A stretch of 64,000 nucleotides of DNA from Lacinutrix sp. Bg11-31 (GTDB lineage Bacteria > Bacteroidota > Bacteroidia > Flavobacteriales > Flavobacteriaceae), in assembly GCF_002831665.1 (NCBI RefSeq), contig NZ_CP025118.1, forward strand, positions 2,728,001 through 2,792,000. Direction: 5' to 3'. Position numbers and translations under genes: made by a program. The notes beneath the pieces are model-generated. The model did no database searches. It saw nothing but the letters and a program-made list of their open reading frames with translations, and had not been told where the DNA came from. This document shows positions 11,897 to 47,787 of this stretch, one piece after another. The first letter of the stretch is position 1, and each line of letters starts with the position of its first letter.

Positions 11897-14800
11897 ATGA
11901 AAAAAACTACTTTATTGTTGATTTTACTTTGTTTAAGTTTATCAATTAACGCACAAACGTATTTAACAGAAAATTTTGACACAAGCATCCCAGCAACATG
12001 GACAATTGACGATGCTGGAGGAGCAACAGGAGATTCTTGGATTTCTGGACAACAAGGAGGAGCAAACAGTCTTGATGGTACTAATGTTGTCATTGCAGAT
12101 AGTGATGCTAATGGAAACGGCACAATATTACTTGAAACTTTAACCTCTCCTGTTTTTGACACCTCAGGAGCTACAGCAATTTTTTTAGACTTCGATCAAT
12201 TTTACAGAAATATTGGTGGAGATACTGCTACTGTAGAAGTTTGGGATGGTACTGCATGGATTGCGGTGTTAACTCAAACAGCAACAGCAGGTGCATTTAA
12301 TGCACCAGATCAACAACATATTAATATTACAGCATATTCTAATGCCGCAATGCAAGTTCGTTTTATATATAATGACAACGATACTTGGGCTTGGTATTGG
12401 TTAATTGACAATGTAATTGTTTACAATGCTACTTGTGCTAATCCAGAAAATTTAATATTAGACAGTGTATCAGATACTACTGCAGATATAAGTTGGACAG
12501 CAGGAGCTACAGAAACAGATTGGGAAGTTGTAGCACAACCTATAGGAACAGGAGCTCCAACTGGAAGTGGTACAGCGGTTAATACTACTCCAACATTTCA
12601 AGCTACAGTATTAACACCAATAACAGATTACGAGTTTTATGTAAGAGCAAATTGTGGAGGAGATTTTAGTATCTGGGTCGGCCCTTTAAACTTTACAACA
12701 GAATGTGCAGCATTTATTCCTGATTACCAACAAGACTTCGCAACAATTCCAGCTGACTGTTGGGATGAAGCAGATAGTGGAGATTCAACTACTGGTCCAG
12801 GAGATATTGGTGCTGGATCATGGAATCAAGATGGATTCTTAAATAACGGTTTTCAAGGTTCTTATAGTATTAATCTGTGGTTAGCAGCAAAAAGCGATTG
12901 GTTGTTAACCCCTTTGTTTGATTTAACTGGAGGCCCTTTTCAAGCCGAATTTGATCTTGGAGTAATGGCATTTGGAAGTACAACTAATGTAGGAACCTTA
13001 GGTTCTGATGATATCGTTCAGTTTTTAATTACTACAGATTCTGGCGCTACCTGGACTGTTTTAGAGACATGGGATTCTACTAGTGTTTTTCCGTTAACAG
13101 GTTTACACCCTGTTTATGATTTAACAGCATATGCAGGACAAAATGTACAATTTGGGATTTTAGGATCTGAAGGAACAGTTGATGATGCAGAAGATAATGA
13201 AGCTTTTATTGATAATTTCCAAGTTAGAGCAATACCTAATTGCCCAGATGTTGCTAATATCGTATTTGATTCTTCAACTGCAACAACCGCTAATTTAACT
13301 TGGGATATTGTTGCTGGTGAAACAGGATGGGAAGTTTCCGTTCAAGTTCCAGGAACTGGAATTCCAACTGCTGCTGGCGCAACAGCAACAAATAATGCTC
13401 CATACGTAGCAATGGGATTAACACCTGCGACAGATTATGAAGCTTATATAAGAACAGTATGTGGTGGTGATTTTGGCAGCTGGATAGGTCCAGTTAATTT
13501 TGCTACAGAATGTACAACATTTATTGCACCATATACAGAAGGTTTTGAAAACGCAGGAGCTATTCCTCTTTGTTGGACTATGGACGGTGGTGAAGATTGG
13601 GAATTTGCTGATAATGGTGGTTTTGATCATATTGGAAATGATGGAACACTAACAGGTTCTACTGCAACAAATGGTTATTTTGCTTGGGTAGATGCTTCTG
13701 GAACTAATGCTCCTGCAACACTAACGACTCCTTTAATAGATGTGTCTGGATTAACAACTCCAGCTATAACTTTTTATGAAATCTCGGATAATGAAGGTAA
13801 TGCCAACTCACAATTAGATGTAGAAGTTTGGGATGGAGCAGCATGGAATTTAATGGCAACATATAATACAAATACTGCAGGTTGGGAACAACGCACAATT
13901 AATATAAGTACACTTACTATTACAGGAGATGTACAAGCTAGATTTATTTTCTCTGAAGTATTAGCACCAGGAGATTTCTACGATGATATTGCAATAGACG
14001 ATGTTACTTTCGATGAGCTGCCTTCATGTGTAAATCCATCTAACTTAGTTTCAAATAGTACAACATCAACTACAGCTAATTTATCTTGGGTTTCTAATGG
14101 AACAGAAACAGCTTGGGAAGTAGTAGTTCAGGCTCCAGGATCAGGAATACCAACAGCAGCAGGATTGCCAGCAGCCAATCCTTATGTAGCAATGGGATTA
14201 ACACCAGCTACAACATACGAAGCTTATGTTAGAGCAGACTGTGGAGGAGTTGAGTATAGCGATTGGATAGGCCCAGTAACATTCGATACAGAATGTGTCA
14301 CTTTTGTCGCACCATATACAGAGGGTTTTGAAAATGCAGGAATTATTCCTTTATGTTGGACAATGGATGGCGGTGAAGATTGGGAGTTTGCTGATGATAC
14401 TGGTTTTGATCACATTGGAAATGATGGTGTAATTACAGGAACAACTGATACAAATAATTACTTTGCATGGGTGGATTCTTCAGGAACCGATAATCCTGCA
14501 ACTTTAACAACTCCTTTTATAGATGTTTCAGCACTATTAGCTCCAACACTTTCATTTTATGAAATTAGTGATAATGAAGGGAATTCCAATTCTACTTTAG
14601 ACGTAGAAGTTTGGGATGGAGCAGTATGGAACCCAATGGGAACTTACAATACAAATACTAATGGTTGGGAAGAAAAATTTATAGATCTTAGCGGACTTAC
14701 AATTACAGGACCTGTGCAAGCAAGGTTTGTTTTTTCTGAAATAATAGAGCCAGGAGATTTTTATGATGATATCGCAATAGACGATGTAACTTTTAACGAA

Positions 14801-17614
14801 GCTCCAACTTGTTTTAACCCAGAAGCAACATATACAATAATAGACGACTGTGCTAATGGAGATCAATTTTTAGTAGATATAGATGTAACCTATTTTGGTG
14901 GTGCAACATCTGTTTCAATACAAGATAACCAAGGTAGTACACCTATTTCTATAACATCAACAACTGGTGTAACTCAATTTGGGCCTTATCCTTTAAATAC
15001 AGATGTTATTTTCACGGTAAGTAGCGAGCAAGATACTTGTTTCAATACAAGCCCAACTATTAACCTTCCTACATGTCCACCTGCTAATGATAATTGTGAT
15101 AATGCAATTTCGGTAATAGCTAATACAGATGGAAACTGCACTAACTCGGTAACCGCTACTCTATTTGGAGCTACAACATCTCCACAAGCTAATCCATGTA
15201 CTGGAACAGCAAATGACGATGTTTGGTTCATATTTACAGCAGTAAATACTGATCACGCTGTTAGTTTTAGTAACATTATAGGTCCTACAACCTTCTTATC
15301 TCATGGCTTATACGAAGGGCCAGATTGCGATAATCTTACAAATATATATTGTAGTACAGCAGACGAAAGTATTGCAAATGGATTAACTATAGGAAACACA
15401 TACTACGTAAGAGTCTTTACTTTTAATGGAACTCCTTTTCAAGATGTTAACTTCGACTTATGTATATATTCTATTCCTCCTCCTATTACTGTAGATATTG
15501 CGCAATATACAGTTACAGAATTGGTTGAAGATATATTAGTTAATTCACCATGTTCAACAATTTCTAATGTAACATCATCTACAGGAACAGATTTTGGTTC
15601 AGACAATGGTATTGGTTATTTTGAAGCTAATGGCTCTGGATTCCCTTTTGAAAGCGGTATTATAATGACCACTGGTAATGCAGAAAATGCTCCTGGCCCA
15701 GAAACAGGAACATTGAGTGATGGAGGAGGTGGATTTCCCGCAACTTGGCCAGGAGACGCAGACTTAGAAGCGGTAATAAATGAAGGGCCGACAAATAACG
15801 CCTCAATTATTGAATTCGATTTCGTACCTTTTATTGAAGATATGTCTTTCGAGTTTATATTTGCAGCTGAAGAATATGGTACTTTCCAATGCGGATATTC
15901 TGATGCATTTGCATTTTTACTAACAGATACAGTAACTGGCATCACAACCAATATCGCTGTTATTCCTGGTACAACAACACCTGTATCCGTATTTACAATT
16001 AGGGACGATGCGTATAATGGCGGTTGTCCTTCTTCAAACCCAGCATTATTTGATGCTTATTATGGTGGTGGTGGATTACCCGCTTTAACAAACCCAACAA
16101 ACTTTATAGGTAGAACAGTACCATTAACTGCTTCCTCTACAGTTGTACCAAACAGAACATACCACATAAAACTAGTAGTTGCAGATGATGGTGATACAGC
16201 TTTCGATTCTGCAGTATTCTTAAAAGCTGGAAGTTTTGAAATTGGAGAAGTAGATTTGGGAGATGATATCTTATTAACTAGTGGAACTGCTAATTGTGAA
16301 GGAGACGAAGTTACTCTAGATATTGGTGTTCCTGTTGGAGACAATGCTACCATAACTTGGTATACTATGGAGAATGGAATACAAGAACCAATTCTTGACG
16401 CTACAGGAGCACCTGAAAATGGAACAACTTTAGATGTAACAGAAACTAATAATTATATTGTTGAAATTGTTCTTAATGCTAACGCTTCTTGTTTTGTAAT
16501 AGATGAAATTTTAGTAGAATTCTTCCCTAATCCCGTATTTCCAGATTCACTTCCAGATATTCTTGGATGTGATACAGACAATACTGGTCAAGCAATTTTT
16601 AATATAACTGAAAATGAAGCACTAATTCTTGGTACACAAACTGATGAAACTGTTACTTATTATGAAACGCAAACAGATGCAGAAGACGGAATTAATGCTA
16701 TAACAAACACAACAGCATACCAAAGCACACCTCCAACTACAATTTATTATAGAATTGAAAGTAATACGACAGGTTGTGCTAAAACATCTACATTTAACTT
16801 AGTATTAGCTCCAAAGCCTATTTTAGTTCAAGCTGATAATATTTTAGGTTGTGATGATGACGAAGATGGTGTTTCAAATTACGATTTAACATCTAATGAA
16901 ATTGTAATAGCTAATAACCAAACAGATTTAACTTTTACATATCATAACACTTTAGCTGATGCTGAAACAAGTATAGCTGCTATTACTAATCCTACCGATT
17001 TTGATGGTGGTGCACAAACCATATACGTAAGAGCTGAAAATGCTAATGGTTGTTTCGAAACAACAATATTCGATTTAACATTTGGTATATCACCAATGAC
17101 ATCATTCGACACCGCTATAGTTTACGAAGTATGTCCAAATGCAACAGTTCCAATTACTGTAACTGCAACTGCAGACAGCTATACAGAATCTGAAGTAACC
17201 ATTACATGGTATAACGAAGGCGTAATAGTTCCTGGACAAACAGATTTAAGTATAAATAATGTACTTACTGCTGGTACTTATACTATAGAAGTTATGTTTA
17301 ACGCAACAGGCTGTACATCTAGTGAACCAATAGAGGTTGAAGAGTTAGAAACCTGTGTTATCCCACAAGGTATTTCACCAAACAATGATGGTAAGAATGA
17401 TACATTTGATTTAAGTAGTTATGATGTTCAAAGCTTAACGATTTTCAATAGAAACGGAGTTAAGGTTTACGAGAAGACAAATTATTTAGATGAGTGGCAT
17501 GGACAATCATTAGATGGTGATGAGTTACCAGTAGGAACTTATTATTATGTAATGAATTACCAAGGCAATAAAACAAAAGCCGCTTGGGTATACATTAACA
17601 GAGAAAACAAATAA
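11897..17614 (+). CDS. Large T9SS type B surface protein: FN3, MAM-like and choice-of-anchor L domains
   Basis: A 1905-residue exported protein with a signal peptide (MKKTTLLLILLCLSLSINAQ). Alternating jelly-roll/MAM-like modules and fibronectin type III-like modules run to about residue 970; two of the MAM-like modules, starting near residues 538 and 799, are close duplicates. A pre-peptidase-like module (PANDNCDNAISV..., about 1060-1190) follows. A choice-of-anchor L domain spans about 1198-1447 (STGTDFGSDNGIGYF...GIIMTTGNAENAPGP). Two similar beta modules (LGCDTDNTGQAIFN and LGCDDDEDGVSNYDL) precede the CHU_C/gliding-associated type B sorting domain at about 1821-1905 (PQGISPNNDGKNDTFDL). 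This is the SprB-like architecture and gene order: surface adhesin, then PorP/SprF, then OmpA. Predicted to be exported by T9SS and to act in adhesion or gliding. Confidence 0.93.
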   Translation: MKKTTLLLILLCLSLSINAQTYLTENFDTSIPATWTIDDAGGATGDSWISGQQGGANSLDGTNVVIADSDANGNGTILLETLTSPVFDTSGATAIFLDFDQFYRNIGGDTATVEVWDGTAWIAVLTQTATAGAFNAPDQQHINITAYSNAAMQVRFIYNDNDTWAWYWLIDNVIVYNATCANPENLILDSVSDTTADISWTAGATETDWEVVAQPIGTGAPTGSGTAVNTTPTFQATVLTPITDYEFYVRANCGGDFSIWVGPLNFTTECAAFIPDYQQDFATIPADCWDEADSGDSTTGPGDIGAGSWNQDGFLNNGFQGSYSINLWLAAKSDWLLTPLFDLTGGPFQAEFDLGVMAFGSTTNVGTLGSDDIVQFLITTDSGATWTVLETWDSTSVFPLTGLHPVYDLTAYAGQNVQFGILGSEGTVDDAEDNEAFIDNFQVRAIPNCPDVANIVFDSSTATTANLTWDIVAGETGWEVSVQVPGTGIPTAAGATATNNAPYVAMGLTPATDYEAYIRTVCGGDFGSWIGPVNFATECTTFIAPYTEGFENAGAIPLCWTMDGGEDWEFADNGGFDHIGNDGTLTGSTATNGYFAWVDASGTNAPATLTTPLIDVSGLTTPAITFYEISDNEGNANSQLDVEVWDGAAWNLMATYNTNTAGWEQRTINISTLTITGDVQARFIFSEVLAPGDFYDDIAIDDVTFDELPSCVNPSNLVSNSTTSTTANLSWVSNGTETAWEVVVQAPGSGIPTAAGLPAANPYVAMGLTPATTYEAYVRADCGGVEYSDWIGPVTFDTECVTFVAPYTEGFENAGIIPLCWTMDGGEDWEFADDTGFDHIGNDGVITGTTDTNNYFAWVDSSGTDNPATLTTPFIDVSALLAPTLSFYEISDNEGNSNSTLDVEVWDGAVWNPMGTYNTNTNGWEEKFIDLSGLTITGPVQARFVFSEIIEPGDFYDDIAIDDVTFNEAPTCFNPEATYTIIDDCANGDQFLVDIDVTYFGGATSVSIQDNQGSTPISITSTTGVTQFGPYPLNTDVIFTVSSEQDTCFNTSPTINLPTCPPANDNCDNAISVIANTDGNCTNSVTATLFGATTSPQANPCTGTANDDVWFIFTAVNTDHAVSFSNIIGPTTFLSHGLYEGPDCDNLTNIYCSTADESIANGLTIGNTYYVRVFTFNGTPFQDVNFDLCIYSIPPPITVDIAQYTVTELVEDILVNSPCSTISNVTSSTGTDFGSDNGIGYFEANGSGFPFESGIIMTTGNAENAPGPETGTLSDGGGGFPATWPGDADLEAVINEGPTNNASIIEFDFVPFIEDMSFEFIFAAEEYGTFQCGYSDAFAFLLTDTVTGITTNIAVIPGTTTPVSVFTIRDDAYNGGCPSSNPALFDAYYGGGGLPALTNPTNFIGRTVPLTASSTVVPNRTYHIKLVVADDGDTAFDSAVFLKAGSFEIGEVDLGDDILLTSGTANCEGDEVTLDIGVPVGDNATITWYTMENGIQEPILDATGAPENGTTLDVTETNNYIVEIVLNANASCFVIDEILVEFFPNPVFPDSLPDILGCDTDNTGQAIFNITENEALILGTQTDETVTYYETQTDAEDGINAITNTTAYQSTPPTTIYYRIESNTTGCAKTSTFNLVLAPKPILVQADNILGCDDDEDGVSNYDLTSNEIVIANNQTDLTFTYHNTLADAETSIAAITNPTDFDGGAQTIYVRAENANGCFETTIFDLTFGISPMTSFDTAIVYEVCPNATVPITVTATADSYTESEVTITWYNEGVIVPGQTDLSINNVLTAGTYTIEVMFNATGCTSSEPIEVEELETCVIPQGISPNNDGKNDTFDLSSYDVQSLTIFNRNGVKVYEKTNYLDEWHGQSLDGDELPVGTYYYVMNYQGNKTKAAWVYINRENK

Positions 17615-24035: not shown

Positions 24036-25721
24036 ATGAACCATTTATTAGCTATAGAGAATTTATCTATTTCTTTTTTTTCCAACAGAAAAGAAAACGA
24101 AATCATCCATAATATATCTTATCATTTAAACACAAATGAGATACTTGGTATAGTAGGAGAATCCGGCTCGGGTAAATCGGTTTCATCTTTAGCCATTTTA
24201 GGATTGCTTCCAAAGAAGATTTCAAAAATAACTTCTGGTAGTATTATTTTTGAAGACAATGATTTAACTAAAATAACATCGAAAGCTTTTCAGCAAATAA
24301 GAGGACAGAAAATAGCAATGATTTTTCAAGAACCTATGAGTTCTTTAAATCCTTCAACAACATGCGGCAATCAAGTAGAAGAAATATTGTTTCAACATAC
24401 TAAATTATCTAAAAAAGAAGTTAAGGCAGAAACGCTCTTACTTTTTGAAAAAGTAAAACTACCAGAACCGGAACGCGTGTATTCTTCTTATCCTCATGAA
24501 ATTTCTGGTGGACAAAAACAACGTGTCATGATTGCAATGGCGATTGCATGTAAACCGCAAATATTAATTGCAGATGAACCAACGACTGCTTTAGATGTTA
24601 CAGTGCAGAATGATATTGTAGATTTATTAAAGGAGTTACAAACAAAGACTAAAATGAGTATAATATTTATTACTCATGATTTGTCGTTGATTTCTCAAAT
24701 TGCAAACCGCGTGCTCGTTATGTACAAAGGCAATATTGTAGAGCAAAATACAGTTGAATCCATTTTTAAATCGCCACAACATAATTACACAAAAGCACTA
24801 ATAAGCGCGAGACCTTCGCTAACCAAAAGATTAAAACGACTACCAACCATTAGCGATGTAATGAATGATGCTGTTAATAATTCTGTTATTACTTCAGAAA
24901 TGAGAGCAATTCAGCACGAAAAAATATATAATCAAGCACCTTTATTAGAAGTTATTAATCTTGAAAAAGAATACATCTCTAAATCTGGTTTGTTTTCTAA
25001 AGCCGAAAACTTTAAAGCTGTTAACAATGTAAGTTTTAAACTATATGAAGGAGAGACTTTAGGTCTTGTAGGAGAATCTGGTTGTGGAAAATCGACATTA
25101 GGTAACGCTATATTGCTTTTAGACAGGCCAACAGCTGGCACTATTTTATTTAAAGGTAATGACATTACAAAACTAAACTCTACTCAAGTAAAAGCCCTTA
25201 GAAAAGACATTCAGATAATATTTCAAGATCCTTATTCTTCATTAAATCCAAGACTAACTGTTGGGCAAGCAATAATGGAGCCCATGAAAGTTCATAATCT
25301 ATTTTCTAATGCAACAGAAAGACAAGAAAAAGTAATAGAAATTCTAGAACGCGTTGGTTTAGAGGCTTCACATTTTAACAGATATCCTCATGAGTTTTCT
25401 GGAGGACAGCGTCAACGAATAGGTATAGCACGAACTGTTGCTTTGCAACCTAAATTAATTGTTTGCGATGAATCTGTTTCTGCGCTAGATATTTCTGTAC
25501 AAGCACAAGTATTGAATTTGTTAAATGAATTGAAAGAAAATTTTGGGTTTACCTATGTTTTTATATCACACGATCTTGCAGTAGTAAAATACATGAGTGA
25601 CCAATTATTGGTAATGAATAAAGGAAAAATAGAAGAGTTGGATGATGCTGATGTTATCTATAATGCTCCAAAAAAAGAGTATACTAAAAAATTGATAGAC
25701 GCTATACCAAAAGGTTTATAA
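24036..25721 (+). CDS. Fused dipeptide/oligopeptide-type ABC transporter ATP-binding protein (DppD-DppF-like)
   Basis: 561 residues with two complete ABC ATPase domains in one chain. The first has Walker A GESGSGKS (41-48) and signature SGGQKQR (from 157); the second has Walker A GESGCGKS (346-353) and signature SGGQRQR (from 455). Both have the Walker B/D-loop order (ADEPTTALD, CDESVSALD). The C-terminal oligopeptide-transporter (oligo_HPY-like) segment is present after the first domain. These ATPases power peptide or nickel-type importers of the Opp/Dpp family. No permease or binding-protein gene is nearby, so the partners are encoded elsewhere and the substrate is unknown. Confidence 0.93.
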   Translation: MNHLLAIENLSISFFSNRKENEIIHNISYHLNTNEILGIVGESGSGKSVSSLAILGLLPKKISKITSGSIIFEDNDLTKITSKAFQQIRGQKIAMIFQEPMSSLNPSTTCGNQVEEILFQHTKLSKKEVKAETLLLFEKVKLPEPERVYSSYPHEISGGQKQRVMIAMAIACKPQILIADEPTTALDVTVQNDIVDLLKELQTKTKMSIIFITHDLSLISQIANRVLVMYKGNIVEQNTVESIFKSPQHNYTKALISARPSLTKRLKRLPTISDVMNDAVNNSVITSEMRAIQHEKIYNQAPLLEVINLEKEYISKSGLFSKAENFKAVNNVSFKLYEGETLGLVGESGCGKSTLGNAILLLDRPTAGTILFKGNDITKLNSTQVKALRKDIQIIFQDPYSSLNPRLTVGQAIMEPMKVHNLFSNATERQEKVIEILERVGLEASHFNRYPHEFSGGQRQRIGIARTVALQPKLIVCDESVSALDISVQAQVLNLLNELKENFGFTYVFISHDLAVVKYMSDQLLVMNKGKIEELDDADVIYNAPKKEYTKKLIDAIPKGL

Positions 25722-26152
25722 CATAAATACCTTTTTTGTTAAGTACATCATACTTCTAAGAAATTTAAATGTGTTCTTTATTTTTTGGTACTGCTTTAAT
25801 AAAAATAAATCTGAATTCATAGGTAGGTTGTTTATGATAGATTTGGGTTTATACTATTTCTACTTTGAAATCATCATTTTGACTTTACAATAATTTCAAA
25901 GTAAATCTAGAATTACATAACAAAAGCATTTAAGCTAATGGTACATTTGAGGTTATAAAATTTGATAGATTTGGGATTGCTAATATAAGTGAGATTTTAC
26001 GATAATCGGCTTAAAAGCGTTATTATTCGACAAAATGCATTAAATTTTAACATTTAATACCTTTTTTCACTCTTTTAGCAGGTTTCAGCTTTAATATAAA
26101 TTAAGTAAACCTATAACTTCCCCTATTATTAATTCACCTAAAAAACACCTAT
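25722..26152. other. 431-bp AT-rich intergenic region between convergent genes, with internal repeats
   Basis: No credible gene is visible. It contains an 11-bp inverted repeat TACTTTGAAAT / ATTTCAAAGTA (25861-25903) and a 12-bp direct repeat GATAGATTTGGG at 25836-25847 and 25964-25975, 128 bases apart. It lies between the ABC ATPase (plus) and scoB (minus), so it must hold both genes' 3' ends. Confidence 0.6.
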
Positions 26153-26806
26153 CTATAAGCTCATTTCTGGAATATCACCTTCTATAATTAAAGTCCCTTC
26201 TGTGGCTTTTTTAATTTCTTCAACAGATACTCCTGGTGCGCGTTCTAAAAGTTTAAAACCTTTATCTGTAACCTCTAAAACAGCTAAATTAGTTACTACT
26301 TTCTTAACACAACCTACACCTGTTAATGGTAAAGAGCAGTTTTTAAGTATTTTAGACTCTCCTCTTTTATTAGTATGCATCATGGCAACAATAATATTTT
26401 CTGCACTTGCAACTAAATCCATAGCTCCACCCATTCCTTTAACCATTTTTCCTGGTATTTTCCAGTTGGCTATATCCCCATTCTCAGCTACTTCCATAGC
26501 TCCTAAAATGGTTAAATCTACGTGTTGTCCACGAATCATTGCAAAGCTCATTGCACTATCAAAAAAACTTGCACCTGGAAGCGTAGTAATCGTTTGTTTT
26601 CCTGCGTTAATAATATCTGCGTCTTCCTCACCTTCAAAAGGAAATGGCCCCATTCCAAGGACTCCGTTTTCACTTTGAAATTCAACTTCTATATCGTCAC
26701 GCACATAGTTTGCTACTAATGTAGGAATACCTATTCCTAAGTTTACGTAGTAACCATCTTGTACCTCTTTTGCAATGCGTTTTGCTATTCCTGTTTTGTC
26801 TAACAT
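26153..26806 (-). CDS. scoB: 3-oxoacid CoA-transferase subunit B
   Basis: 217 residues, the beta subunit of a class I CoA-transferase. The glycine-rich GIGIPTL and the catalytic-Glu motif SENGVLG (E46) are present, and the length is standard. Together with subunit A it moves CoA between succinyl-CoA and 3-oxoacids such as acetoacetate, in ketone-body and branched-chain use. It lies downstream of scoA on the same strand, but is separated from it by 87 bases occupied by a pair of palindromic repeats. The exact acceptor (succinyl-CoA, acetate or butyrate) is inferred from the family. Confidence 0.93.
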   Translation of the reverse strand: MLDKTGIAKRIAKEVQDGYYVNLGIGIPTLVANYVRDDIEVEFQSENGVLGMGPFPFEGEEDADIINAGKQTITTLPGASFFDSAMSFAMIRGQHVDLTILGAMEVAENGDIANWKIPGKMVKGMGGAMDLVASAENIIVAMMHTNKRGESKILKNCSLPLTGVGCVKKVVTNLAVLEVTDKGFKLLERAPGVSVEEIKKATEGTLIIEGDIPEMSL

Positions 26807-37833: not shown

Positions 37834-37912
37834 TCAAATAAAAAAGGTGAACGAGAGTTCACCTTTTTTGCCCCAAATCTACCATGAACTTAACCTACTT
37901 ATGTTATGGTAA
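37834..37912 (-). ncRNA. Candidate small structured RNA, copy 1
   Basis: Read on the minus strand: a -7 box TATATTTG (37916-37923) is followed after four bases by a stem-loop with outer pairing TACCAT/ATGGTA (37880-37885 and 37906-37911) and inner AAC/GTT pairing, then the linker GATTTGGGGC, then a perfect 13-bp terminator hairpin (37840-37869) with loop TCTC and a U-tract. Predicted length about 75 nt. Positions 37863-37912 are identical to 38085-38134 in copy 2. The layout resembles small flavobacterial RNA families such as Flavo-1 in style, but the identity was not checked. It lies between the convergent barrel-protein and purF genes. Confidence 0.65.
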
Positions 37913-37915
37913 GCT

Positions 37916-37923
37916 CAAATATA
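37916..37923 (-). promoter_or_regulatory. -7 promoter box of small RNA copy 1
   Basis: TATATTTG on the minus strand, an exact TAnnTTTG match, with the predicted transcript start only a few bases downstream at the first stem. The -33 region is AT-rich without a clear TTTG. Confidence 0.55.
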
Positions 37924-38061
37924 ACGAAGTGTTTTTAATAAAAATATTTTTTTAGATAAATGGTAAATATATCTGCTGAATTACACTTGGTCGATACTCT
38001 CGAATAAATTGATATTCAACTATATAAAGCGCTACTTCTATAAAATAAACAATAAATCATG

Positions 38062-38134
38062 AAAAAAGCCGAACGAGAGTTCGACTTTTTTGCCCCAAAT
38101 CTACCATGAACTTAACCTACTTATGTTATGGTAA
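38062..38134 (-). ncRNA. Candidate small structured RNA, copy 2
   Basis: The same architecture as copy 1: near-consensus -7 box TACATTTA (38137-38144), stem TACCAT/ATGGTA (38102-38107 and 38128-38133), linker GATTTGGGGC, terminator hairpin (38062-38091) and U-tract. Compared with copy 1 the terminator stem has one compensatory change (T-A at 37848/37861 becomes C-G at 38070/38083) and one pair lost to C-A (38069/38084), while the 50 bases from the U-tract through the first stem are unchanged. The purF stop codon is 80 bases away on the upstream side of this copy. Confidence 0.65.
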
Positions 38135-38136
38135 TA

Positions 38137-38144
38137 TAAATGTA
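38137..38144 (-). promoter_or_regulatory. -7 promoter box of small RNA copy 2
   Basis: TACATTTA on the minus strand; matches TAnnTTTG except for the last base, at the same spacing from the stem as in copy 1. Confidence 0.45.
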
Positions 38145-38214
38145 TATTAAAGATAGTTAGCTAGGAAATCTTTCAGATTAAAAGCAACTATTTTAGTTAA
38201 AGTGAAATAAGCGC

Positions 38215-40113
38215 TTAATAAGCACGCTCTTTATTGCCTTCGAAAAAGTTAATAAACGCTCTATTAACTACTCGATTTCCTCCTACTGTTGGATAATCTC
38301 CTGTAAAATACCAGTCTCCTAAATTTTTAGGACATGCTTTATGAAGATTCTCTACAGACTGGAAAATAATTTCTACTTCTGCACTCACAGACTCGTCACT
38401 TAAAAGCTGAGATATTTTTGCTGAAATTTCTTCTGGTGTAAATTGATCGTAAATTTCATTTACAAAGTTCTTTACATCTTTATCTGCTAAGTTTTCTTGT
38501 GCTTTACATTTATGGTAAACAGTTTCTACTAAATCGTATTTATTATTATCCTTTAATAGTTCTAAAGCAGCGTTAAAAGCAACCAGTGTTTCTAAATTTG
38601 CCATATCAATACCATAGCAATCTGGAAAGCGTATTTGTGGTGCAGAAGAAACAACTACTATTTTTTTAGGATGCAATCTATCCATCATTTTAATAATACT
38701 CTTCTTTAACGTTGTACCACGAACAATACTATCGTCTATAATAACAAGATTGTCTGTTGGTTTAATTACACCATATGTAACATCGTAAACATGAGCAACT
38801 AAATCATCTCGACTACTATCTTCTGTAATAAATGTTCTTAGTTTTACATCTTTGATGGCTATTTTTTCGATACGAGGTCTTTCTTTTAAAATATCAATAA
38901 CCTGTTGTTTTGTTAACTTTCCATCACCATTTAATATGGCTTGCGTTTTACGCTCGTTTAGATGCTCTTCAACAGTTTCAATCATTCCAAAGAAAGAAGT
39001 TTCAGCTGTATTAGGAATATAAGAAAACACAGAGTTTGCTGTATCGTTTCCAATGGCTTTTAAAACTTCTGGCATTAATAACCTTCCAAGCATTTTTCGT
39101 TCTTGGTAAATTTCTGCATCACTACCACGTGAGAAATAAACACGCTCAAAAGAGCAAGCTTTACGCTCTAAAGGCTCTAGAATTTTCGTAATAGCAACTT
39201 CGCCAGATTTCTTAGTAATAATGGCGTGACCTGGGTCTAATTCCTTAACATCATCAAACTCAACATTAAATACTGTTTGAATAACTGGACGTTCTGAAGC
39301 GACAACAACAACCTCATCATCCTTATAATAATAAGCTGGGCGAATACCAGAAGGATCTCGTAAAACAAAAGAATCTCCATGACCTAACATTCCTGCCATT
39401 GCATAACCACCATCCCAGTTTTTTGCGGCTCTTTTAAGTATTTTAGCAACATTTAATCGCTCTGCAATTAATGGTGAGCATTCACTTTTTTTATAACCTT
39501 CTTTTTTTAATTTTTTATAAATTTTACTAACAGCATCATCAAGAAAATGTCCTATTTTCTCCATAATGGTAATAGTATCGGTATATTCCTTTGGGTGTTG
39601 CCCAAGCTCGACTAAACTACTAAACAGCTCTTTTACATTGGTCATGTTAAAGTTACCTGCAAGTATTAAGTTTCTATGTTGCCAGTTATTTTGACGTAAA
39701 AATGGATGCACACTCTCTACACTATTTTTACCAAACGTTCCATAACGTACATGACCTAAAAGCACTTCGCCAATATATGGAATATGTTGTTTTTGAAGCG
39801 CTACGCTATCGTTGTATTCTGGGTGCGCTTCTAATTCATTATTAATACGCTCGTTAATTTGCGCAAAAATATCTTGAATTGGCTGTTGCTCAATAGAGCG
39901 CACGCGACTTATATAACGTTCTCCTGGTTTAGTATCTAATTTAATACTTGCAAATCCTGCACCATCTTGTCCACGATTGTGCTGTTTTTCCATCAGTAAA
40001 TACATTTTATTCACTCCGTAAAAAGCACTTCCGTATTTTTCTTTGTAGAATTCTAATGGTTTTAAAAGCCTAATGTGCGCAATTCCGCATTCGTGTTTTA
40101 AAGCATCACTCAT
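38215..40113 (-). CDS. purF: Amidophosphoribosyltransferase (PurF-type)
   Basis: 632 residues. An N-terminal class II glutamine amidotransferase domain starts MSDALKHECGIAHIR, so Cys9 is the likely catalytic nucleophile after processing; QHNRGQDGAGFAS and VRYGTFG are intact. The C-terminal phosphoribosyltransferase domain has the PRPP motif VIIDDSIVRGTTLKKS. It transfers amide nitrogen to PRPP in the first step of purine synthesis. It is somewhat longer than the E. coli enzyme, with extra residues near the C-terminus, as in other Bacteroidota. It heads a minus-strand cluster, reading from high to low, of purN, broken cyclase, RNase H, kinase and purF. Confidence 0.93.
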   Translation of the reverse strand: MSDALKHECGIAHIRLLKPLEFYKEKYGSAFYGVNKMYLLMEKQHNRGQDGAGFASIKLDTKPGERYISRVRSIEQQPIQDIFAQINERINNELEAHPEYNDSVALQKQHIPYIGEVLLGHVRYGTFGKNSVESVHPFLRQNNWQHRNLILAGNFNMTNVKELFSSLVELGQHPKEYTDTITIMEKIGHFLDDAVSKIYKKLKKEGYKKSECSPLIAERLNVAKILKRAAKNWDGGYAMAGMLGHGDSFVLRDPSGIRPAYYYKDDEVVVVASERPVIQTVFNVEFDDVKELDPGHAIITKKSGEVAITKILEPLERKACSFERVYFSRGSDAEIYQERKMLGRLLMPEVLKAIGNDTANSVFSYIPNTAETSFFGMIETVEEHLNERKTQAILNGDGKLTKQQVIDILKERPRIEKIAIKDVKLRTFITEDSSRDDLVAHVYDVTYGVIKPTDNLVIIDDSIVRGTTLKKSIIKMMDRLHPKKIVVVSSAPQIRFPDCYGIDMANLETLVAFNAALELLKDNNKYDLVETVYHKCKAQENLADKDVKNFVNEIYDQFTPEEISAKISQLLSDESVSAEVEIIFQSVENLHKACPKNLGDWYFTGDYPTVGGNRVVNRAFINFFEGNKERAY

Positions 40114-47682: not shown

Positions 47683-47768
47683 TTGGGCGTTACCTAAAGG
47701 TCGCGCTTTCCACTATATCTTTTGCAAAAAAAGCAAAAGGATGCCGCTACAATCACTAACGCGGACTA
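47683..47768. repeat. Probable dispersed Bacteroidota-type intergenic repeat
   Basis: An 86-bp sequence with GC-rich islands and ends in inverted orientation (GGGCGTTA ... TAACGC), including an internal hairpin ATCTTTTGC / GCAAAAGGAT. It stands out by base composition from the AT-rich surroundings and resembles a repeat family I have seen in many flavobacterial intergenic regions. Confidence 0.55.
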
Positions 47769-47787
47769 AGGATAGTAAACATAAATT

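What the first reader, a model, noticed from the sequence alone, without database searches (positions are those of the whole stretch)
37834..38144. Two tandem copies of a small structured RNA beside purF
Two elements of about 75 bases, 222 bases apart, share 50 identical bases (37863-37912 and 38085-38134) in an otherwise AT-rich gap. On the minus strand each has, in order, a -7 promoter box (TATATTTG, TACATTTA), a stem-loop, the linker GATTTGGGGC, and a terminator hairpin with U-tract. The terminator stems show one compensatory pair change (T-A to C-G). That combination, complete promoter-to-terminator units duplicated in place, is what tandem small RNA genes look like. They lie between convergent genes and could act in trans or be a duplicated regulatory sRNA.
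Basis: partly seen in the sequence, partly recalled or inferred. Interest (0 to 1): 0.72.

Follow-up and report, generated by a model that had tools for sequence, protein, structure and literature searches.

The report
Tandem small RNAs and their target
Two back-to-back small-RNA genes found next to a purine gene belong to an undescribed RNA family of flavobacteria, and they appear to be switched on by one regulator protein together with a tiny-protein gene whose message they can bind.

Summary
In detail: two 73-nt copies (95% identical, 222 bp apart) on the minus strand, each with a -7 box, 5' hairpin, GATTTGGGGC linker and intrinsic terminator. They belong to an RNA family without an Rfam match at gathering score, found in 240 of 299 Flavobacteriaceae genomes (E<=1e-5), 1 to 6 copies per fetched locus, usually about 110 nt after purF. 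The terminator stem covaries; the 42-nt core changes little.

Most promoters carry two direct repeats 20 bp apart that resemble LytTR (AlgR/AgrA-type) sites. One LytTR response regulator, encoded divergently from rpsF-rpsR-rplI, has such repeats before its own gene and co-occurs with the RNA (219 of 240 against 5 of 59 genomes; control regulator 103 of 240 against 11 of 59). The same repeats precede a 34-44-codon peptide gene between scoB and an oligopeptide ABC gene. Its leader and start region hold one to three sites complementary to most of the RNA's 5' domain. In this window that gene is at 25716-25820, 12 kb away.

Best reading: the regulator makes both the sRNAs and their target mRNA, and the sRNAs block the peptide's translation. 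Transcription, binding and direction of regulation are inferred, not shown.

The parts
38062..38132 (-). sRNA copy 2 (next to purF): predicted start near 38132, 5' hairpin 38103-38132, linker AGATTTGGGGC 38092-38102, terminator 38062-38091
   Evidence: model R1 match 98.3 bits
37840..37911 (-). sRNA copy 1: predicted start near 37910, 5' hairpin 37881-37910, linker 37870-37880, terminator 37840-37869
   Evidence: model R1 match 101.7 bits
38137..38144 (-). -7 box TACATTTA of copy 2
   Evidence: TAnnTT at about this place in 208 of 217 non-redundant family promoters
37916..37923 (-). -7 box TATATTTG of copy 1
38168..38207 (-). pair of LytTR-like direct repeats upstream of copy 2
   Evidence: box score 19.3, best in the window (this promoter was in the training set); 99.9% of random positions score under 5.8
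37947..37986 (-). pair of LytTR-like direct repeats upstream of copy 1
   Evidence: box score 12.2-12.4 (in the training set)
26001..26040 (-). same direct repeats upstream of the target peptide gene
   Evidence: box score 16.0, second site in the window, not in the training set; found before 38 of 38 located peptide genes
25980..25987 (-). -7 box TATATTAG of the target mRNA, 10 bp nearer the repeats than in the sRNA promoters
25915..25954 (-). sRNA-complementary site 1 in the target leader (-39.1 kcal/mol)
25817..25856 (-). sRNA-complementary site 2, pairs over the start codon (-35.3 kcal/mol)
25716..25820 (-). target small ORF, 34 codons, MNSDLFLLKQYQKIKNTFKFLRSMMYLTKKVFML
   Evidence: profile A3 match E 4.4e-9; ORF; no Pfam or NCBIfam match
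38215..40113 (-). purF-like amidophosphoribosyltransferase gene, conserved upstream neighbour of the sRNAs
   Evidence: TIGR01134 125.6 bits, E 3.3e-36, below its curated cut-off of 350; neighbour in 166 of 183 loci
26153..26806 (-). scoB, 3-oxoacid CoA-transferase subunit B, upstream neighbour of the target
   Evidence: TIGR02428 above cut-off
24036..25721 (+). oligopeptide/dipeptide-type ABC transporter ATPase, convergent neighbour of the target

Best explanation
The two elements are tandem genes for one small trans-acting RNA of about 72 nt. A LytTR response regulator (encoded beside rpsF, outside this window) binds two direct repeats at about -70 and -50 and activates each copy. The same regulator binds its own promoter and that of a 34-44-codon peptide gene between scoB and an oligopeptide ABC gene. 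The sRNA's 5' domain pairs with one to three tandem sites in that peptide's leader and start region and most likely blocks its translation. Seen in sequence: RNA family, promoters, shared repeats, complementarity, co-occurrence. Inferred: transcription, binding, activation, repression.
For: Family: 240 of 299 Flavobacteriaceae genomes at E<=1e-5; outside the family only 9 weak matches (E>=5.6e-4) in the phylum sample of 296 genomes. Terminator covariation (on 38 tails picked for the exact 13-4-13 fold). Repeats in 208 promoters; a matrix from one half detects 90 of 104 held-out promoters above the 99.9% point of shuffles. Regulator: L193 orthologue (E<1e-60) in 219 of 240 sRNA+ and 5 of 59 other genomes; control LytTR 103 of 240 and 11 of 59. 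Of 15 small sRNA+ genomes with LytTR genes (1-3 each), 14 have one whose best own-genome match is L193 (the 15th was not extracted). Repeats before the regulator's own gene in 30 of 30 loci. Target: repeats before 38 of 38 located peptide genes; best duplex -37.8 to -49.2 kcal/mol in 10 leaders, shuffled leaders at best -25.9; all three start-codon bases paired in a duplex of -35.3 or better in 9 of 10; peptide (E<1e-8) in 83 genomes, all sRNA+.
Against: No expression data. Co-occurrence is not corrected for phylogeny. 21 of 240 sRNA+ genomes lack a strong regulator match, e.g. G296 (99% complete; has sRNA, peptide and repeats), and 5 of those 21 have none at all. The loss test is weak: the three regulator-less genomes scored (G189, G215, G237) lack recognisable repeats, but so do three with a regulator homologue (G104, G323, G216). 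24 of 208 sRNA promoters score under 5.8 for the repeats, and 31 of 208 have a -33 TTTG (10.8 expected), so the regulator may not be needed everywhere. The peptide is a strong match in only 83 of 240 sRNA+ genomes; of 22 sRNA+ scoB loci viewed in genomes mostly chosen for lacking it, 9 show a peptide-like ORF and 13, five of genus g151 among them, do not. Half-site similarity to LytTR sites is by eye; AraC-type regulators also bind 21-bp direct repeats (recalled).
Confidence: 0.7

Rival explanations
1. The peptide mRNA is mainly a sponge: its complementary sites titrate the sRNA away from other mRNAs, and the sRNA's real targets lie elsewhere.
For: 9 of 10 leaders have two or three separate sites below -25 kcal/mol (five have three; L309 has one), some wholly in the untranslated leader; the sRNA is present in genomes where the peptide was not found; GCCCCAAAT occurs 289 times against 74 for the reversed word in 12 genomes (the count includes the sRNA genes, and the control word contains CG and TAA, so it is imperfect).
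Against: A duplex of -35.3 kcal/mol or better pairs all three start-codon bases in 9 of 10 leaders (not L315), and the peptide C-terminus is conserved.
Confidence: 0.25
2. A type I toxin-antitoxin-like pair: a mostly cationic amphipathic peptide held in check by the multicopy sRNA.
For: 34-44 aa; a 20-residue C-terminal stretch more amphipathic than 96-99.8% of shuffles in 6 of 7 peptides; net charge 0 to +6; pairing over the start codon.
Against: No clear membrane span (mean hydrophobicity of that stretch -0.10 to 0.24); the pair appears to share one activator; sRNA found without a strong peptide match in 157 of 240 genomes.
Confidence: 0.12
3. The sRNAs are real, but another regulator binds the direct repeats (a different LytTR or an AraC-type protein).
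For: 12 LytTR genes in the own genome; one genome (L086/L141) has the sRNAs directly downstream of a different LytTR operon; three genomes with an L193 homologue lack recognisable repeats.
Against: That other LytTR shows only weak co-occurrence (odds ratio 3.3 against 113); small genomes keep L193-type genes; repeats sit before the L193 gene itself.
Confidence: 0.14
4. The elements are only 3'-UTR or terminator parts of purF transcripts, or a spreading repeat, with no trans function.
For: Position about 112 nt after purF in 166 of 183 loci.
Against: Own promoter and terminator per copy; some loci away from purF; only two copies in the own genome; conserved complementary sites elsewhere.
Confidence: 0.04

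Closest known systems
FopS / GibS sRNAs of Bacteroides (Rfam RF04319; PMC11697453, passages read)
   Same: Same phylum; paralogous sRNAs of about 65-70 nt ending in an intrinsic terminator; pair with translation start regions.
   Different: FopS consensus is a single-stranded 5' stretch plus terminator and targets SusC mRNAs; here a 5' hairpin, other sequence, tandem in place. RF04319 gives 18 bits at copy 1 (gathering 56).
Multicopy sRNAs under a response regulator, such as Vibrio Qrr and pneumococcal Cia-dependent sRNAs (named in PMC11697453; details recalled)
   Same: Several similar sRNAs under one regulator.
   Different: LytTR-like sites and a Bacteroidota -7 promoter here; the target mRNA appears to be driven by the same regulator; no sequence relation known to me.
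LytTR regulons (AlgR, AgrA, HdrR; PMC4064291, PMC6193735, PMC4227749, passages read)
   Same: 9-bp direct repeats, mostly 12 and sometimes 11 or 13 bp apart, just upstream of the promoter; AlgR core CCGTTCGTC; positive autoregulation in LRS operons.
   Different: Here the promoters would drive sRNAs and a peptide mRNA that pairs with them; the regulator gene lies beside ribosomal protein genes.
Flavo-1 RNA (RF01705)
   Same: Flavobacterial RNA motif, one copy in this window.
   Different: No match at the element.
Rfp1-89 of Flavobacterium psychrophilum (PMC9723704, passages read)
   Same: Independent flavobacterial RNAs; sigma-A -7 consensus TAnnTTTG; one could be this family.
   Different: Sequences are in supplements I could not read; Rfp18 is described with a third stem-loop, unlike this RNA.

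Membership tests
Small regulatory RNA gene (general kind) | Own promoter and intrinsic terminator per copy | tested here: met
   -7 box in 208 of 217 promoters; 156 of 156 distinct tails fold at -11.1 kcal/mol or better, and every one printed is a single hairpin before a T run
Small regulatory RNA gene (general kind) | No conserved reading frame | tested here: met
   The one core ATG gives frames of 5 to 19 codons or no stop within the tail in 301 distinct elements, and the frame shifts by one base in 33 of 299
Small regulatory RNA gene (general kind) | Transcribed as a discrete RNA | not testable with these tools
   No RNA-seq available
Small regulatory RNA gene (general kind) | Acts by base pairing on a trans target | tested here: inconclusive
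   Strong conserved complementarity and shared promoter repeats; no experiment
FopS (RF04319) | Reaches the Rfam gathering score of 56 bits | tested here: not met
   18 bits, E 3.5
Flavo-1 (RF01705) | Reaches the Rfam gathering score of 42 bits | tested here: not met
   No match at the element
LytTR-controlled promoter | Two 9-bp direct repeats separated by 11-13 bp upstream of the promoter | tested here: met
   Repeat period 20 bp, i.e. 9+11; spacing rule from PMC6193735 passages
LytTR-controlled promoter | Binding by a LytTR protein | not testable with these tools
   Only co-occurrence and sites before the regulator gene; the loss test is inconclusive
Type I toxin-antitoxin | Small toxic membrane peptide plus antisense RNA that prevents its translation | tested here: inconclusive
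   Small amphipathic peptide and start-codon pairing; toxicity not testable

The most novel reading that the evidence does not exclude
A Flavobacteriaceae-wide three-part circuit: one autoregulated LytTR regulator drives both a tandem multicopy sRNA and its multi-site target, a conserved micro-peptide mRNA. Number of sRNA genes against number of target sites would set a threshold or pulse for the peptide, in a group without an Hfq paradigm (recalled).
Probability: 0.5. Interest if true: 0.85.

Novelty: new variant of a known kind. Interest (0 to 1): 0.76.

Why it matters
Few trans-acting sRNAs of Flavobacteriaceae have a known regulator or target (my impression; Rfp18 is one exception in PMC9723704). 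This family is in most sampled genomes of a family that matters in marine carbon turnover and fish disease, has no match at gathering score in Rfam 15, and comes with a candidate activator, a candidate target and exact candidate binding sites. It makes sRNA control without Shine-Dalgarno sequences directly testable, and it points to an unstudied conserved micro-protein.

Tried and rejected
Rfam with lax thresholds gave only matches far below gathering score. A coding role of the core was tested and rejected: no shared frame. The first regulator candidate, the LytTR operon beside the sRNAs in L086/L141 (L189 type), was rejected as the general partner: 103 of 240 sRNA+ and 11 of 59 other genomes. 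GCCCCAAAT sites of the own genome: 6 of the 11 outside the sRNAs were fetched; one (L316) is intergenic with a terminator but has no repeats upstream on its strand; five lie within or antisense to coding frames and were not pursued. RNAalifold on alignment A1 missed the terminator, whose length varies. I first took the -33 box as absent; TTTG is in 31 of 208 promoters against 10.8 expected.

Selection and dropped rows: the loci were picked by the exact core, so the core's invariance is partly by choice; wider model hits vary more (34 distinct cores). The 25 genomes were picked: most sRNA+ ones for having a single match, the 7 sRNA- ones for having none, so '7 of 7 without LytTR' is not independent evidence. 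9 of 217 promoters without TAnnTT dropped; 2 of 40 peptide loci not located and 14 of 38 without a match to my -7 pattern; G314's LytTR frame not extracted, and G235's best match is near a tie; G116 and G238 promoters not found by my script, G149 and G228 not scored, G242 at a contig end. Of the 183 loci, 169 are distinct around the first copy; the 38 also repeat some genomes. Shuffles: 20 per leader. No phylogeny-corrected test was made.

Full report
Observation. Each folds into a 5' hairpin, an open linker AGAUUUGGGGC and a 13-bp terminator hairpin; z-scores -5.4 and -5.0. The four differences between the copies fall in two terminator pairs and keep both pairs on the minus strand (U-A to C-G, G-C to U-G); on the plus strand one would be broken. 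This favours minus-strand transcription.

Family. No Rfam family reaches its gathering score at the element. A relatives search matches 55 of 99 genomes at E<=0.1, 47 of them at E<=1e-14, including the own genome and all 12 of the same genus. The exact 32-nt hairpin occurs in 99 stretches of named contigs, among them Lacinutrix, Olleya, Winogradskyella, Bizionia, Aquimarina and Salegentibacter. A covariance model from 23 sequences matches 248 of 299 Flavobacteriaceae genomes at E<=0.01, of which 240 at E<=1e-5. In a phylum sample of 296 genomes, 26 family members match at E<1e-12 and 9 genomes outside the family only weakly, E>=5.6e-4. Copies per fetched locus run from 1 to 6, median spacing 215 nt, and in 166 of 183 loci they follow purF on the same strand, median 112 nt after it. 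Of the 183 loci 169 are distinct; several of the 17 without purF lie near the end of the fetched stretch, others are truly elsewhere.

Structure. In the terminator stem 28 cells are changed on both sides against 7.2 in shuffles, none of 500 reaching it; the count of such pairs (7 against 4.6) is less striking, 36 of 500. In the 5' helix 10 of 11 pairs never vary in that alignment, so it says nothing for or against that helix; many loci were picked by their exact core, and wider hits vary more, mostly in the 5' part. Pairing with the target, below, may explain the conservation. The core has no shared reading frame.

Promoters. In 208 of 217 non-redundant promoters a TAnnTT box stands where the Bacteroidota -7 box is expected (consensus TAnnTTTG at -12 to -5 from PMC9723704, passages). 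Upstream are two half-sites, roughly GCnTTTnAyC, 20 bp apart at about -70 and -50. Held-out test: 90 of 104 promoters score above the 99.9% point of shuffled sequence. A -33 TTTG is not the rule, though it occurs in 31 of 208, 10.8 expected. Spacing and place of the repeats fit LytTR sites: 9-bp repeats 11-13 bp apart just upstream of the promoter (PMC6193735, passages) and the AlgR core CCGTTCGTC (PMC4064291, passages); boxes such as GCCGTTCATC are common in genus g151 loci.

Regulator. The own genome has 12 LytTR genes. A set of small genomes, picked, narrowed them: 15 of 18 sRNA+ genomes have one to three LytTR genes, three have none; the 7 sRNA- genomes, picked for having no match, have none. 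In 14 of the 15 one gene is best matched by own gene L193 (G000:C1:550182-550874, outside the window); one is near a tie and the 15th was not extracted. The broader test does not depend on that choice: across the same 299 genomes an L193 orthologue (E<1e-60) is present in 219 of 240 sRNA+ and 5 of 59 sRNA-negative or weak genomes (odds ratio 113). The control LytTR, L189, gives 103 of 240 and 11 of 59 (odds ratio 3.3). Neither is corrected for phylogeny. L193 has receiver and LytTR domains. In 12 of 12 loci viewed it lies divergent from three small genes, which in L242 are those for ribosomal proteins S6, S18 and L9; I recognised no kinase gene beside it, by eye only. Its own upstream region holds the repeats: best score 11.9-20.1 in 30 of 30 loci, 99% point of shuffles 11.1, and in most of them two pairs 20-21 bp apart, so three or more half-sites (these 30 are close relatives). 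The matrix was trained on sRNA promoters only. The loss test is inconclusive: of the sRNA+ genomes without a match to the regulator, the three that could be scored (G189, G215, G237) score -11.0 to -1.6, below the 99% point of random positions, and G215 has a TTTG 18 nt upstream of its -7 box; but G104, G323 and G216, which have a regulator homologue, also lack recognisable repeats, while G055 and G142 have them. G296 has repeats before its peptide gene, sRNA and peptide but no strong orthologue match.

Target. Weak, distant matches turned out to be antisense: sites complementary to the sRNA core between scoB and a convergent oligopeptide-type ABC ATPase gene in 11 genera. They sit in the leader and start region of a small ORF of 34-44 codons, own copy included, ending in LTKKxFML or nearly so. 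Its profile matches 83 of the 299 genomes at E<1e-8, all 83 sRNA+, none of the 59 others, which have only weak matches, and 311 database proteins; in the 120 listed, names given are hypothetical or uncharacterized and no Pfam domain is shown. The own copy is in this very window, minus strand 25716-25820. Window-wide, its promoter has the second-best repeat site (16.0; sRNA copies 19.3 and 12.4), and its two sites are the strongest pairings after the sRNAs' own antisense strand, -39.1 and -35.3 kcal/mol, in a scan at 20-nt steps. In 10 leaders the best site reaches -37.8 to -49.2 kcal/mol against at best -25.9 for shuffled leaders and -27.4 for shuffled sRNA. In 9 of 10 a duplex of -35.3 or better pairs all three bases of the start codon; L315 is the exception. 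All 38 peptide genes that I could locate have the repeats upstream, scores 10.4-23.2, 37 of them above 11.1, the 99% point of shuffled windows; the -7 box is 9-10 bp nearer than in the sRNA promoters in 23 of the 24 where it was recognised. In genomes mostly chosen for lacking a strong peptide match, 9 of 22 sRNA+ scoB loci show a peptide-like ORF and 13 do not, five g151 genomes among them; three sRNA- loci show neither peptide nor a site below -24 kcal/mol.

Mechanism and limits. Most likely the regulator activates sRNA and target together, and the sRNA covers the peptide's start codon. That it represses rather than activates, and that the mRNA is a target rather than a sponge, is inference. 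The peptide's C-terminal part can form an amphipathic helix in 6 of 7 examples, compatible with membrane association.

Literature. Searches showed me no title or abstract start describing this RNA, regulator or peptide; they cover open-licence papers only. Two flavobacterial RNA-seq studies (PMC9723704, PMC5395568; passages read) list sRNAs in supplements that I could not open, so the transcript may already be recorded there under a number.

Noticed in passing
window 47695-47771 (-): Flavo-1 RNA, 54.4 bits, above gathering score.
   Followed up: no
window 11785 (+), before the large gene 11897-17614: Promoter-like match to the sRNA promoter matrix, 12.3, with two half-sites visible by eye; possible further regulon member. 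Its box-only score did not reach 9.
   Followed up: partly
L316 1249 (G000:C1:473547): Intergenic GCCCCAAATCTA followed by a terminator-like hairpin and T run, no peptide ORF seen: possibly another RNA that pairs with the sRNA.
   Followed up: partly
L313 about 1311 and L314 about 1312: In two genera a sense-like copy of AAGTTATGGTAGATTTGGGGC lies upstream of a gene starting MKKLDEIMEL: the seed domain may occur in another RNA.
   Followed up: no
L202, L206, L209, L215 (LytTR genes of small genomes): In several small genomes the regulator's receiver domain seems, by eye, to lack the usual acidic pair or phospho-acceptor aspartate, which would suggest phosphorylation-independent function.
   Followed up: no
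L086 5871-7940 (-): A kinase, Hpt-like and LytTR gene row directly upstream of an sRNA pair in one genome, with a superoxide-dismutase-like gene on the other side (names by eye except LytTR).
   Followed up: partly
L367 (G370), after scoB: In a g151 genome the repeats are present downstream of scoB (score 17.6) but precede a different ORF, starting MERKLPKIMASAIIIL.
   Followed up: no
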